Shown: piece by piece, positions 3,021 through 49,417 of the stretch
Layout of the letters: each line of letters starts with the position of its first letter
Numbering within the stretch: the stretch's first letter is position 1
Source: Janibacter sp. HTCC2649
GTDB lineage: Bacteria; Actinomycetota; Actinomycetes; Actinomycetales; Dermatophilaceae
Direction: 5' to 3'
DNA length: 64,000 nucleotides
NCBI RefSeq assembly: GCF_000152705.1
Contig: NZ_CH672413.1
Location: forward strand, 558,001-622,000
The notes under the pieces: generated by a model
What the model was told of the DNA's origin: nothing
Databases searched by the model: none
Seen by the model: only the letters and a program-made list of their open reading frames with translations
Translations under genes and position numbers: made by a program

Positions 3021-5177
3021 GTGAAGACCACGACCCCCCGCTTCTTCGACCTCCCCGAACGACTCTCCCCCAAGGCCGGTCCAGCGCTGATCGCCGCTGA
3101 TGAGAGCCATTTTGGCGCCATCGCGTTCAGCCTGGAACAGACCATTCGCGAACTCTCGGAGCGGCTGACAGCTGCCCGCAAGGCGCCCGGCGGCAAGGGT
3201 CAGGCCGCGATGGATCGCGACCTGGAGATCCACCGCCTCACCGGTCGATTGCGCACCCTGAGCCGCTATGGCGTCGACCTCTGTCTGGGCCACATCGTTG
3301 CTGACGATGACTTCGAGCCCATCTACATCGGGCGCCTGGGCCTCACCGACGCCGAGGGTTCCCGGCTCCTCGTCGACTGGCGCTCCCCCGCCGGTGAAGC
3401 CTTCTTCGGCGCGACCCACGCGAACCCCATGGGCCTTGCCAGTCGGCGCCGCTACCGCTGGCAGAACGGTCGGGTCACGGACTACTGGGACGAGGTGTTC
3501 ACGGCCCACGGCCTCGAGTCCAACGCCGCGCTCGATGACCAGTCGGCGTTCATTGCCAGCCTGGGCAACAACCGCTCCGAACGGATGCGCGACGTGCTCG
3601 GCACGATCCAGGCCGACCAGGACGCCATCGTGCGTGCGGGGTCCAAGGGGGCCCTCGTCGTCGACGGAGGTCCAGGCACGGGCAAGACGGTCGTCGCACT
3701 GCACCGGACGGCATACCTGCTGTATTCAGATCCGCGACTCGGCCACCGCAAGGGCGGGGTCCTCTTCGTTGGACCGCATCAGCCCTATCTGGCCTATGTC
3801 TCTGACGTCCTGCCCAGCCTCGGCGAGGAGGGAGTCCTGACGTGCACCATCCGTGACCTCGTACCCGAGGGCGTCAGTGCACCGATCGAGGCTGATGGCA
3901 CCGTTGCTCGGCTGAAGTCGACGGCCGCCATGGTCTCGGCGATCGAGCCCGCAGTCACGCTCTATGAAGAGCCCCCTCGCGACGGCATGACGGTTGAAAC
4001 GCACTGGGCGGAGGTCTGGCTCAGCCCCGAGGACTGGGCCCTGGCCTTCGACGCCGCCGCCCCCGGAACCCCGCACAACGAGGCGCGCGACGAGATCTGG
4101 GAGGAGCTCGTCGCAATCATCGTCGAGAAGCACGATGACGAGGAGGCCGGTGCCCCGCACGAGTTGCTGCGCAAGACCCTGCGGCAGAACGAGGACCTCC
4201 TCGAGACCTTCCACAGGGCCTGGCCGCTCATCGAGGCCACGCACCTCGTGAGCGACCTGTGGTCGGTTCCGGCCTACCTGCACCGATGTGCTCCGTGGCT
4301 CAGTCTTGAGCAGATCCGTTGCCTCCAGCGCGACGATGCACAGGCCTGGACGCTCTCGGACCTCCCCCTGCTCGATGCGGCACGACAACGCCTCGGTGAC
4401 CCCGAGGCCTCACGACGCAGGCGCCGACAGGAGGCCGCAGCAGAAGCAGAGCGAGAGCGGGTGGCCACCGTCATCGACGACCTCATCGCTGCCGATGACG
4501 ACGGCGAAGGGCTGGTGACGATGCTGCGGCACCCCGACATCCGGACGAACCTCGTCGACTCCGAGATCGTCCCGTCCGCCGCAGTCGACCAACTGGCCGG
4601 CAGGTTTGCGCACATCGTCGTCGATGAGGCTCAGGAGCTCACTGACGCAGAGTGGCAGATGCTCTTGTTGCGTTGCCCCTCACGCAGTTTCACGATCGTC
4701 GGCGACCGCGCGCAGGCACGCCACGGGTTCACCGAGTCCTGGGAGGAGCGCCTGGCTCGCGTCGGCCTCGACCGCGTGATCATGGCGTCGTTGAGCATCA
4801 ACTACCGAACGCCCGAAGAGGTCATGGCAGAGGCCGCTCCAGTGATTCGGGCAGCGATCCCGGACGCCAACGTCCCGACGTCCATCCGCAGCACGGGAGT
4901 TCCGGTCACCCATGCCTCGGTGTCAGACCGCGACACGATCCTCGGTGCGTGGCTGGCCGAACACGACGAGGGTGTCGCCTGCGTCATCGGCGATCCGAGC
5001 TTCGAGGCGACGGCGCGGGTGCACGCTCTCACGCCGGAGCTCTCCAAGGGCCTTGAGTTCGACCTCGTCGTCCTCGTCGACCCCGAGACGTTCGGTGCCG
5101 GGATCGAGGGAGCGGTCGACCGCTACGTCGCGATGACCAGGGCGACCCAGCGGCTCGTCATCCTCACGAGCCGCTGA
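3021..5177 (+). CDS. helR: HelD-family RNA polymerase recycling ATPase, HelR type
   Basis: A 718-residue superfamily 1 ATPase. The N-terminal 160 residues hold a helical arm (FSLEQTIRELSERLTAARK) typical of HelD proteins, which reach into the RNA polymerase channels. Walker A GGPGTGKT is at 216-223, Walker B VVDEAQEL around 535, and the late motif MTRATQRLVIL is at the C-terminus. DNA-helicase features of UvrD are otherwise not conserved. HelD proteins release stalled RNA polymerase; the HelR subgroup displaces rifamycins from polymerase and gives tolerance. The RAE just upstream supports HelR rather than a generic helicase. Start GTG 3021 has GGAG at 3011-3014. It is monocistronic: a convergent gene ends 52 bp downstream. 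Confidence 0.88.
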   Translation: MKTTTPRFFDLPERLSPKAGPALIAADESHFGAIAFSLEQTIRELSERLTAARKAPGGKGQAAMDRDLEIHRLTGRLRTLSRYGVDLCLGHIVADDDFEPIYIGRLGLTDAEGSRLLVDWRSPAGEAFFGATHANPMGLASRRRYRWQNGRVTDYWDEVFTAHGLESNAALDDQSAFIASLGNNRSERMRDVLGTIQADQDAIVRAGSKGALVVDGGPGTGKTVVALHRTAYLLYSDPRLGHRKGGVLFVGPHQPYLAYVSDVLPSLGEEGVLTCTIRDLVPEGVSAPIEADGTVARLKSTAAMVSAIEPAVTLYEEPPRDGMTVETHWAEVWLSPEDWALAFDAAAPGTPHNEARDEIWEELVAIIVEKHDDEEAGAPHELLRKTLRQNEDLLETFHRAWPLIEATHLVSDLWSVPAYLHRCAPWLSLEQIRCLQRDDAQAWTLSDLPLLDAARQRLGDPEASRRRRRQEAAAEAERERVATVIDDLIAADDDGEGLVTMLRHPDIRTNLVDSEIVPSAAVDQLAGRFAHIVVDEAQELTDAEWQMLLLRCPSRSFTIVGDRAQARHGFTESWEERLARVGLDRVIMASLSINYRTPEEVMAEAAPVIRAAIPDANVPTSIRSTGVPVTHASVSDRDTILGAWLAEHDEGVACVIGDPSFEATARVHALTPELSKGLEFDLVVLVDPETFGAGIEGAVDRYVAMTRATQRLVILTSR

Positions 5178-6638: not shown

Positions 6639-6710
6639 CGCCCGTCCTGCACGAACTTGCCCGCCACTCCCTCGTGTGAGACCTTCGGGTCAGAGCCTGG
6701 GACCAGGCTT

Positions 6711-6753
6711 CCGGACGAGGGGCGCCGTACCCGGCACGCGACAAGACGGCCCG
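6711..6753 (+). promoter_or_regulatory. Guanidine-III riboswitch (ykkC-III class)
   Basis: The stretch contains CCGGACGAGG (6711-6720), GCGCCGTACCCGG (6722-6734) and ACAAGACGGC (6741-6750) in this order. These are the conserved blocks of the guanidine-III pseudoknot aptamer as known from Thermobifida fusca, with only small length differences in the linker. The ribosome site AGGAG at 6755-6759 follows directly, so folding of the aptamer can mask or release it: guanidine binding is expected to turn translation on. The downstream gene is an SMR exporter of the guanidine (Gdx) subgroup, the best-known client of this class. Confidence 0.92.
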
Positions 6754-6768
6754 CAGGAGTGTCTCGTC

Positions 6769-47067: not shown

Positions 47068-47250
47068 CTAGCTGTACTGACCCGACAGGTTGGTTAAGCG
47101 GGTGATGGGTGGCTTGTTCCCGCAGGCGGTGTGGGGTCGGTGGTGGTTGTACTCGTGGAGCCATGCTGGCAGAGCTTGGCGTCGTTCGGTTTCTGAGGTG
47201 TAGCAGCGGGCGTATCCCCACCCGTCGGCCATGGTGCGGTGGAAGCGTTC
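47068..47250 (-). pseudogene. IS481 transposase, 3' fragment (residues 269-328)
   Basis: The minus strand encodes ERFHRTMADGWGYARCY at its upstream end, the catalytic-Glu motif and following helix of IS481 transposases, and ends RLTNLSGQYS. It continues in frame from the 5' fragment that stops at NGKI (48614) if the IS110 is removed. Glu269 is the third acid of the DDE triad. The fragment has no start of its own, so it is silent unless the inner element excises precisely. Confidence 0.93.
47073..47095 (+). repeat. IS481 terminal inverted repeat, left
   Basis: Begins TGTACTGACCCGACAGG and is the exact inverse of 49517-49539 over 23 bp. The duplication GCTAGC abuts it at 47067-47072. The transposase stop codon (47068-47070 on the minus strand) falls inside that duplication. 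Confidence 0.95.
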
Positions 47251-47266
47251 GATGCTCCTATGTTCG

Positions 47267-48379
47267 TCAAGCGGCAGTTTCGACCGTGCGCGCGAGTGGG
47301 TCCGCGATGGCGGGTGTGGGCAGGTTGTTGAAGACCTCGCGGGCGATGTAACGCTTGAGGCACCGGATGATCTCGCGTTTGCTCAGGCCCTCGGCGGTTC
47401 GGCGCTCGACGTATTCACGAGTTGGTTGGTGGTGGCGCATCCGGACGAGCGTGACGATGTACAGCGCGCTGTTGGCGGCCCGGTCACCACCTCGGCTGAG
47501 GCGGTGTCTCCCGCGGGTGCGGCCGCTGCTGGCAGGTTGAGGCGCGACACCGCAAAGCTTCGCGAACGCGGCCTCGTTGCGGATCCGATCAGTGTTGTCA
47601 CCGGCGGTGACGAGGAACTGGCCGGCGATCTCTACTCCGACGCCATGCAGCTCCAGCAGTTCCGGTGCAGCCGCCTGGACGAGGGCCTCGATCTGCTTGT
47701 TCAGAGTCTTGATCTCGGCGTCGAGGCCCTTCCAGCGGCGGGCCAAATCCCGCAGCGCGGTCTTGACCCCTGCCATCAGCATCCGGTTGGGGTCGTGGGC
47801 CAAAGACTGCAGGTCATCAGTTTCCGGACGTAGCCCGAGGCAGCGGTTGACTAAGGTTCGTTTGCTGAGGATCACCAGTTCGTCACGCAACGGTGACGGG
47901 GAACCGATCATTACCCCGAACAGGGTGTTGAACGCCTGCGTGCGCGCTTTCACGGCACTGGTGCGGGTCACTCGTAAGGTGCGGATCACCTCAACGGCAC
48001 CGGACTTGGCCTTCGGGGTTGCTGTCGACGTTTCGCCGAGTACGGCGCGCGCGATCTGCTCGGCGTCCAGGCGATCAGATTTGCCATCCATGCGCCTGGC
48101 TGCCCGGTTGGGTCGGTTGACTTCGACCACTCGTTCACCAGCGGTCGTGAGCGCCCTGGTCAGCGTCGCGCCGAAGGAGCCGGTGCTCTCGACGCCGATT
48201 GCCTGCACGGTCCCGTGCTGGCGAATCCAGCCCAGGAGCGCCTGGTAGCCCGAATCGTTTGCCGGGAACTCGTGGTGGCCGAGCAACCTGCCGTGGTCGT
48301 CGATGGCTGCTGCGTAGTGGGTGTGCTTGTGGGTGTCGACGCCGCCAATCACGGTGACAGTCGCGGTGGTGGTTGTCAT
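47267..48379 (-). CDS. IS110-family transposase (DEDD recombinase)
   Basis: A 370-residue recombinase. The N-terminal RuvC-like DEDD domain starts VIGGVDTHKHTHYAA (Asp15), with AIGVESTGSFG and KSDRLDAEQIARAV supplying Glu and further Asp residues. A coiled-coil segment (RRWKGLDAEIKTLNKQIEAL) links to the C-terminal Tnp domain LLELHGVGVEIAG and PQPASSGRTRGRHRLSRGGDR, where the catalytic Ser is expected. Length and motifs are intact, so it appears functional. Start ATG 48379. IS110 recombinases act with a bridge RNA that pairs with both donor and target. Confidence 0.95.
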   Translation of the reverse strand: MTTTTATVTVIGGVDTHKHTHYAAAIDDHGRLLGHHEFPANDSGYQALLGWIRQHGTVQAIGVESTGSFGATLTRALTTAGERVVEVNRPNRAARRMDGKSDRLDAEQIARAVLGETSTATPKAKSGAVEVIRTLRVTRTSAVKARTQAFNTLFGVMIGSPSPLRDELVILSKRTLVNRCLGLRPETDDLQSLAHDPNRMLMAGVKTALRDLARRWKGLDAEIKTLNKQIEALVQAAAPELLELHGVGVEIAGQFLVTAGDNTDRIRNEAAFAKLCGVAPQPASSGRTRGRHRLSRGGDRAANSALYIVTLVRMRHHQPTREYVERRTAEGLSKREIIRCLKRYIAREVFNNLPTPAIADPLARTVETAA

Positions 48380-48426
48380 GCTGGATTTCGCTCCTCCGTT
48401 AGGGCTGATCTGACGGATGCGGCGAA

Positions 48427-48598
48427 CCGGCCGGACGGACGACAGGTCTGTGACGGGGCTTCTAGTCCAAGCTCCTATCAGGTCAGTTCCGTCTGGCCGG
48501 TGCGCGCCACGGCGCTGCACCAGCACCGGTCGACAAATCGAACGCAGGACACCTTGGTCATACCTTGGCCGGGGTCAGACCGGGCCGGTGCAGCGCCT
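48427..48598 (-). ncRNA. Bridge RNA of the IS110 element
   Basis: Read 5' to 3' on the minus strand, two stem-closed loops follow each other. Loop 1 is closed by GGCGCTGCACCGG (48585-48597) with 48511-48529. It contains CAAGGT (48567-48562 or 48556-48551; left target guide, pairs with CAAGAT allowing G-T) and GCGTTCGAT (48545-48537; right target guide, exact complement of ATCGAACGC at the insertion site). Loop 2 is closed by 48488-48500 with 48427-48439. It contains ATAGGAGC (48478-48471; left donor guide, identical to the element's right end) and TCACAGA (48453-48447; right donor guide, complement of the left end TCTGTGA). The order of the four guides and the length of about 172 nt match IS621. 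Its promoter would form only in the excised circle. Confidence 0.85.
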
Positions 48599-48613
48599 AC
48601 CAACATGCTCACA

Positions 48614-49417
48614 GATCTTGCCGTTGGTCTGCGGACGGCGGGGTCGGGTGCGGGAGTGCTTGATCCCGAGCTCGGCGCACAGGTCGCGCCACAGGTGCGA
48701 GATGTAGGCGGATCCGTTGTCGGACAGGACTCTGCGTGTGGTGATGCCACGGACAGCGAACCAGGCGACGGCGCGGCGTAGGACACCAGTGGCGGTCACG
48801 GCGGTTTCGTTGTCGTGGACCTCGGCGTAGGCCACACGAGAGTGGTCATCGATGACGGTGTGCACGAACGCGTGGCCCATCTTCGGCTGGTAATGCTTGT
48901 TCCTCGGTTTGCCCGGGGTGCCTGCCCGGTTCTTCCCGCCTTGGGCTCGGCCCACGAAGCGCCACCCGCCACCGTCGGGGATGTTTCCGAACTTCTTGAC
49001 GTCCACGTGCAGCATGTCCCCGGGGCGCTCGTGCTCGTAACGGCGCACCGGCTCCCCGGTGGCACGGTCGACGTGCGCCAACCGGTTGAGGTGGCACCTG
49101 GTGAGCACCCGGTGCACTGTGGAGGGTGCAACCCCCACGTGTGCGGCGAGCTGGACCGGGCCCAACCGTTTGCGCAGCCGCAACGACACGATCCGCTTCG
49201 TCGTCGAGGGAGACGTCTTGGCGGGCATCGCGTGTGGACGGCTCGAGCGGTCGCTCATCGGTTCACCAGCGGCGTACCGATCGGCCCATCGCTTCACCGT
49301 CGGCCAGGAACATTGGAATCGTGCCGCGACCTCGCTGATCGGGACTCGCTGATCGACGACGAGCTGAGCGACCTTGAGCCGGTGACGAACCGTCAGAGCG
49401 GCGTTAGCGTGGGACAT
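48614..49417 (-). pseudogene. IS481 transposase, 5' fragment (residues 1-268)
   Basis: Starts at ATG 49417 and is intact to residue 268. It has the helix-turn-helix (VPISEVAARFQCSWPTVKRW), catalytic Asp139 in MLHVDVKKF and Asp233 in RVLSDNGSAY, and the conserved RPRRPQTNGKI. Reading then enters the IS110 and stops after about 13 foreign residues (CEHVGRRCTGPV). The third catalytic residue, Glu269, is on the far side of the insertion, so the protein as made should be inactive. Precise excision of the IS110 would restore a 328-residue transposase. Confidence 0.94.

What the first reader, a model, noticed from the sequence alone, without database searches (positions are those of the whole stretch)
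48427..48598. A complete bridge RNA can be read from the IS110 element, with all four guides in place
Minus-strand 48598-48427 folds into two stem-closed loops. Loop 1 holds CAAGGT then GCGTTCGAT; loop 2 holds ATAGGAGC then TCACAGA. GCGTTCGAT is the exact complement of the 9 bp ATCGAACGC at the insertion point; CAAGGT pairs with the left flank CAAGAT using one G-T wobble. ATAGGAGC equals the element's right end, and TCACAGA is the complement of its left end. The guide order (left target, right target, left donor, right donor) and the length of about 172 nt reproduce the IS621 design, where the bridge RNA programmes recombination. A 9-bp match by chance in so short a region is unlikely.
Basis: partly seen in the sequence, partly recalled or inferred. 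Interest (0 to 1): 0.92.

Follow-up and report, generated by a model that had tools for sequence, protein, structure and literature searches.

The report
RNA-guided transposon that breaks other transposases
This is a small jumping DNA element that carries its own guide RNA, and that guide is addressed to the codons next to the catalytic glutamate of other jumping elements' enzymes, so it inserts by landing in, and interrupting, rival transposase genes.

Summary
An intact 1360-bp IS110-group element (window 47254-48613, minus strand) has a predicted bridge RNA (48598-48427) with all four guides in the IS621 order. An identical second copy in the same genome sits in a different gene and matches the left target guide exactly. 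Three uninterrupted copies of the interrupted gene give the empty site. In 15 relatives the RNA fold is kept by compensatory changes. Across 14 distinct guide sets the guides track the insertion sites (0 of 20,000 permutations as good).

The guide spells the codons N-G-K-(I/V)|E-R of IS481-family DDE transposases; the element lands directly before the catalytic Glu. Of 19 elements of this lineage, 17 interrupt a DDE transposase at this motif; one is too truncated to score, one is an exception. A separate IS110 clade with different guides lands mainly in IS3 transposases, just before their catalytic Glu.

The mechanism is known (IS621; ISEc21), and ISEc21 already targets codons of the second catalytic Asp of IS3 transposases. 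The recurrence and the IS481 Glu target appear undescribed in the papers I could search. No RNA was measured.

The parts
47254..48613 (-). IS110-group element, 1360 bp, without the shared TC core
   Evidence: Compared with three uninterrupted IS481 copies and an identical second copy elsewhere in the genome
47267..48379 (-). DEDD recombinase, 370 aa, ATG start behind GGAGGAG; its TGA stop overlaps the TTGACG box
   Evidence: Pfam DEDD_Tnp_IS110 2e-23 and Transposase_20 1e-17; PDB IS621 and ISCro4 recombinases
48427..48598 (-). predicted bridge RNA with target-binding loop then donor-binding loop
   Evidence: Fold z -4.2; compensatory changes in 15 relatives
48562..48567 (-). left target guide CAAGGT
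   Evidence: Pairs with CAAGAT here through one rG:dT wobble and exactly with CAAGGT at the second copy
48537..48545 (-). right target guide GCGTTCGAT
   Evidence: 9 of 9 to ATCGAACGC at both copies
48471..48478 (-). left donor guide ATAGGAGC
   Evidence: Identical to the element's right end
48447..48453 (-). right donor guide TCACAGA
   Evidence: Reverse complement of TCTGTGA at the left end
48614..48620 (-). left half of target, CAAGATC (Lys-Ile codons of the host transposase)
   Evidence: Empty site AACGGCAAGATCGAACGC in L010-L012
47245..47253 (-). right half of target, ATCGAACGC (core, then catalytic Glu and Arg codons)
   Evidence: Empty site in L010-L012
48609..48615 (-). left donor end TCTGTGA (with core TC)
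   Evidence: Pairs with the right donor guide
47254..47261 (-). right donor end ATAGGAGC
   Evidence: Matches the left donor guide; kept in relatives
47265..47270 (-). TTGACG, candidate -35 box that meets a RAnnnT box 17-18 bp away only when the ends are joined in a circle
   Evidence: Same arrangement at the joined ends of 14 elements; by analogy with the ISEc21 circle promoter (PMC11187229)
48614..49510 (-). 5' part of the interrupted IS481-family transposase gene (start codon uncertain)
   Evidence: Joined flanks: rve 1e-19, NCBIfam transpos_IS481 at its cut-off
47068..47250 (-). 3' part of the interrupted IS481 transposase, beginning with the catalytic Glu
   Evidence: rve_3 5e-21; Asp-35-Glu spacing

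Best explanation
This is an intact IS110-group element that moves by bridge-RNA-guided recombination. Shown from sequence: its left end encodes a two-loop RNA whose first loop matches both halves of the insertion site and whose second loop matches both ends of the element. Inferred: the element excises as a circle whose joined ends form a promoter, the RNA and recombinase are made from it, and the complex pairs target and circle and exchanges strands at a TC core. The address is the codons N-G-K-(Ile/Val)|Glu-Arg of IS481-family DDE transposases, so each insertion splits a rival transposase directly before its catalytic Glu. The two positions where the motif varies silently or conservatively (A or G in the Ile/Val codon, A or G in the Glu codon) face a G and a U in the guide, which can wobble, so one guide fits most versions. 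A conserved, dispensable, multi-copy motif gives the element safe landing sites in many actinobacteria.
For: Four guides in place and in order. A second 100% identical copy lies in a different IS481-type gene, with left flank CAAGGT matching the guide exactly. Three empty sites in the same genome. Structure with covariation. Guides track targets over 14 guide sets, 0 of 20,000 permutations. 17 of 19 lineage members interrupt an rve-domain gene at this motif, and the five hosts tested score best against the IS481 model. In the own genome all four intact GGCAAGRTCGAACG sites lie in transposase reading frames. Wobble positions: GTC 8 sites, ATC 5, GTG 1; GAACG 10, GAGCG 4. Recombinase domains and solved relatives.
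Against: No transcript, circle or transposition was measured. The core dinucleotide is inferred. L034, with nearly the same guide, sits in a gene without an rve domain. In the own genome 18 of 22 looser matches (AAGRTCGARCG) are not in transposases and are unoccupied, so avoidance of essential genes may add to the guide's choice. Relatedness inflates the permutation result somewhat, though clearly unrelated guide sets (L067, L093) match 9 of 9 on the left.
Confidence: 0.93

Rival explanations
1. Guided as described, but the transposase target has no adaptive meaning beyond being a common, dispensable sequence. Insertions elsewhere are made but lost by selection, and breaking rivals is a side effect. 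(This concerns the evolutionary reading, not the mechanism, so it is compatible with the best explanation.)
For: Exact guide matches also occur outside transposases in the own genome: CAAGRTCGAACGC has 6 intact sites, 2 not in transposases. One lineage member sits in another gene (L034), and a sister-clade copy with the same guide as a transposase-inserted one sits in another gene (L104).
Against: At least two separate IS110 clades with different guides arrive at the catalytic region of DDE transposases, and ISEc21 is a third case (PMC11187229). Safe sites alone would not obviously favour that region so often.
Confidence: 0.5
2. The site is chosen by the recombinase protein, and the RNA match is a by-product of shared ancestry.
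For: Within the lineage both guide and target are nearly constant, so that lineage alone cannot separate the two.
Against: In relatives with different guides the targets differ in step. IS621 and ISEc21 were shown experimentally to be RNA-guided and reprogrammable (PMC11208160, PMC11187229).
Confidence: 0.03
3. The element is a dead fossil whose guides only record an old insertion.
For: No activity data.
Against: Two 100% identical 1360-bp copies in different genes with open recombinase frames and intact ends.
Confidence: 0.07

Closest known systems
IS621 (IS110 group) and its bridge RNA (PMC11208160, PMC11208158)
   Same: Recombinase domains, RNA in the long left end, two loops, guide order left target, right target, left donor, right donor, tolerance of an rG:dT wobble in the left target guide
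   Different: Core apparently TC instead of CT; right target guide of 9 nt including core (longer guides in some orthologues are noted in the paper); distant recombinase; target is a coding motif instead of a REP sequence
ISEc21 (IS110 type) and its seekRNA (PMC11187229)
   Same: Upstream non-coding region, RNA matching both target strands in the same order, target inside catalytic codons of DDE transposases, promoter at the circle junction (shown for ISEc21, only a candidate here)
   Different: ISEc21 targets the codons around the second Asp of certain IS3 transposases; this lineage targets the codons before the Glu of IS481 transposases, in actinobacteria. One relative found here (L056) splits an IS3 gene at the second Asp, like ISEc21
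IS4321/IS5075 (IS1111 group), which target Tn21 terminal repeats (cited in PMC11208160)
   Same: A DEDD element that specialises on another mobile element
   Different: Targets transposon ends, not the transposase's catalytic codons; as an IS1111-group element its RNA would lie in the right end

Membership tests
IS110 family, IS110 group | DEDD_Tnp_IS110 and Transposase_20 domains | tested here: met
   Both above Pfam cut-offs; PDB IS621 match
IS110 family, IS110 group | Long non-coding left end, short right end | tested here: met
   234 bp upstream, 13 bp downstream of the gene
IS110 family, IS110 group | Insertion without a long target duplication, short core only | tested here: met
   Empty sites show at most ATC shared at the two junctions
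IS110 family, IS110 group | Circular intermediate with a junction promoter | not testable with these tools
   Only the candidate promoter boxes at joined ends were seen
Bridge RNA (IS621 type) | Two internal loops with target guides then donor guides | tested here: met
Bridge RNA (IS621 type) | Guides covary with targets across orthologues | tested here: met
   14 guide sets, 0 of 20,000 permutations
Bridge RNA (IS621 type) | Expressed RNA bound by the recombinase | not testable with these tools
   No expression data
IS1111 group | RNA in the right end | tested here: not met
   Right end beyond the gene is 13 bp; RNA lies in the left end

The most novel reading that the evidence does not exclude
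Several IS110 lineages have independently been selected to aim guide RNAs at the catalytic codons of DDE transposases, with wobble bases placed where the codons vary, making them RNA-guided specialists that live on and disarm competing transposons.
Probability: 0.35. Interest if true: 0.72.

Novelty: new member of a known kind. Interest (0 to 1): 0.52.

Why it matters
It gives a clean natural case in which guide, target, empty site and a second copy all lie in one genome, useful for choosing new bridge recombinases with longer right guides. It also turns one reported oddity (ISEc21) into a pattern: RNA-guided elements repeatedly settle on the most conserved codons of rival transposases. That makes it testable whether transposons use programmable RNA to exploit each other.

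Tried and rejected
Viral contigs: no relative. Phages: one weak match only. Plasmids: one close relative, L078. Class-level and Mycobacterium-family genome searches added nothing close, so the lineage is widespread but thinly scattered. Rfam gave no match here at gathering score; I do not know that Rfam holds a bridge RNA family, so this was not held against membership. Considered that the second CAAGGT (48556-48551) is the left guide: rejected, relatives change it. Considered that the exact 9-bp match could be chance: rejected on copies, relatives and covariation. The in-genome 49% relatives (L003-L006) were considered as further copies: they have other left ends and sit at sites without transposase matches, and their guides were not resolved.

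Full report
Observation. Read on the minus strand, the element runs from 48613 to 47254 (1360 bp). It interrupts a gene between the codons for Ile and Glu of the motif N-G-K-I-E-R-F. Three uninterrupted copies of that gene in the same genome (L010-L012) carry AACGGCAAGATCGAACGC, which is the empty site. The loop also holds a second CAAGGT (48556-48551), but in relatives that one becomes ACGGT or ATGGT while the first (48567-48562) stays, so the first is the left target guide.

Second copy. The genome holds one further copy, identical over all 1360 bp. Its left flank is GGCAAGGTC and its right flank ATCGAACGCTTCCA, in a different transposase with the motif Q-G-K-V-E-R-F. There the left guide pairs exactly, without the wobble. 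Different flanks with an identical element mean movement, not duplication of a segment.

Structure. The strand folds with z -4.2 against shuffles. In an alignment of 15 relatives, 96.7% of pair cells are kept and 12 pairs change on both sides. Ten of these are in the 23-pair outer helix of the target loop. None of 500 shuffles reaches the observed number of such pairs, and slid structures fall to 32-45% paired. The donor loop is too conserved to be tested by covariation.

Guides against targets. I read both junctions and both target guides for 17 elements, the right side alone for one more, and compared 14 distinct guide sets. Scoring the non-core positions, the true pairings reach 115.5 of 154. 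Permuted pairings average 67.7 (sd 8.0), and none of 20,000 is as high. Examples with unrelated guides: L067 CGGCCTGAC and L093 ATTGTCGAC match their left flanks 9 of 9, and L099 matches its own site 8 of 9 on each side. The weak cases (L053, L060, L104) were kept in.

The target is a transposase catalytic motif. For 19 elements 66-100% identical in recombinase sequence I translated the flanks. Seventeen give Pfam rve or rve_3 matches at or above cut-off; some of these are read from one flank only because the contig or the fetched stretch ends. L041 is cut by its contig end but reads P-Q-T-N-G-K-I. L034 is a true exception. Of five hosts tested with NCBIfam, all score best as IS481 family. In the window's gene exactly 35 residues lie between the Asp of S-D-N-G and the Glu, the D-35-E pattern, so it is the catalytic Glu (the pattern itself is from general knowledge of DDE transposases). 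Spacing differs in other IS481 hosts.

Wobble. At the Ile/Val codon the target is GTC in eight sites, ATC in five and GTG in one. The guide base there is G, which pairs with C or wobbles with T. At the third base of the Glu codon the target is A in ten sites and G in four, facing U in the guide. The places where the protein motif varies in DNA are thus places where the guide tolerates it. Whether this is tuned or simply filtered by what can pair is not shown.

How specific is the guide? In the own genome AAGRTCGARCG occurs at 22 intact sites, four in transposases (judged from reading frames, not family scans). CAAGRTCGAACGC occurs at six, four in transposases. GGCAAGRTCGAACG occurs at four, all in transposases. 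The guide alone therefore goes most of the way to the observed preference. Two further G's upstream of CAAG, which the RNA also has with one extra C between (GGCCAAGGT), may add to it.

A second clade does the same with other guides. Relatives at about 48% identity carry left guides near TTACGAC and right guide GCGTTGA. Most sit in IS3-family genes between Asp and Asn of D-S-Y-D|N-A-L-A-E, four codons before the catalytic Glu. L099 has its right flank in an IS3-type gene at N-D|N-P-Y-S-E, and L056 splits an IS3-type gene at the second Asp, H-S-D|R-G. On a recombinase tree the IS481-targeting clade and the IS3-targeting clade are separated by a well-supported branch, with elements that use other targets between. 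The tree is a quick one and the set is a sample drawn by similarity to this element, so I do not give a family-wide frequency.

Comparison with the literature. Bridge RNAs and their programmability are established for IS621 (PMC11208160). ISEc21 was traced to the codons around the second Asp of DDE in certain IS3 transposases, with natural retargeting in a relative (PMC11187229). The mechanism and the idea of a transposase target are therefore known. I found no paper in the held library describing the IS481 Glu-codon target or the recurrence across clades, but subscription papers and preprints are not held.

What remains inferred. Transcription, RNA-protein binding, circle formation, the exact core and present activity are inferred. 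The joined ends show TTGAC(G/A/C) and an RAnnnT-like box 17-18 bp apart in 14 elements, in line with a circle-junction promoter.

Noticed in passing
L026:2254-2270 and L078:2212-2228: Two lineage members from different genera have AAAGCATC instead of the expected AAAATC at the left junction: an extra GC that looks like part of the donor end (GGAGCATC) carried to the left side, perhaps a shifted strand exchange.
   Followed up: partly
L034:2227-2256 and 3513-3545: The one member of the lineage (Actinopolymorpha) that sits in a gene without an rve domain, at a site that still reads AACGGGAAGGTC|GAGTGC.
   Followed up: partly
L075, right junction about 2370-2450: An IS110 relative whose right flank, read on the other strand, encodes A-D-N-A-A-M-E of an IS3-type transposase: the same motif hit in the opposite orientation.
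   Followed up: no
L050, L052, L053, L067: Related elements inserted at or beside what looks like the stop codon of a host gene, with the element's AGTGA left end following TGAC; possibly a second safe-site strategy.
   Followed up: no
L003-L006: A second IS110 type in the same genome (49% identity), three intact copies and one with five stop codons, at non-transposase sites; its guides were not resolved.
   Followed up: no
window 6690-6755: Guanidine-III riboswitch (Rfam 67 bits) upstream of a frame that looks like a small multidrug-resistance type guanidinium exporter; ordinary.
   Followed up: partly
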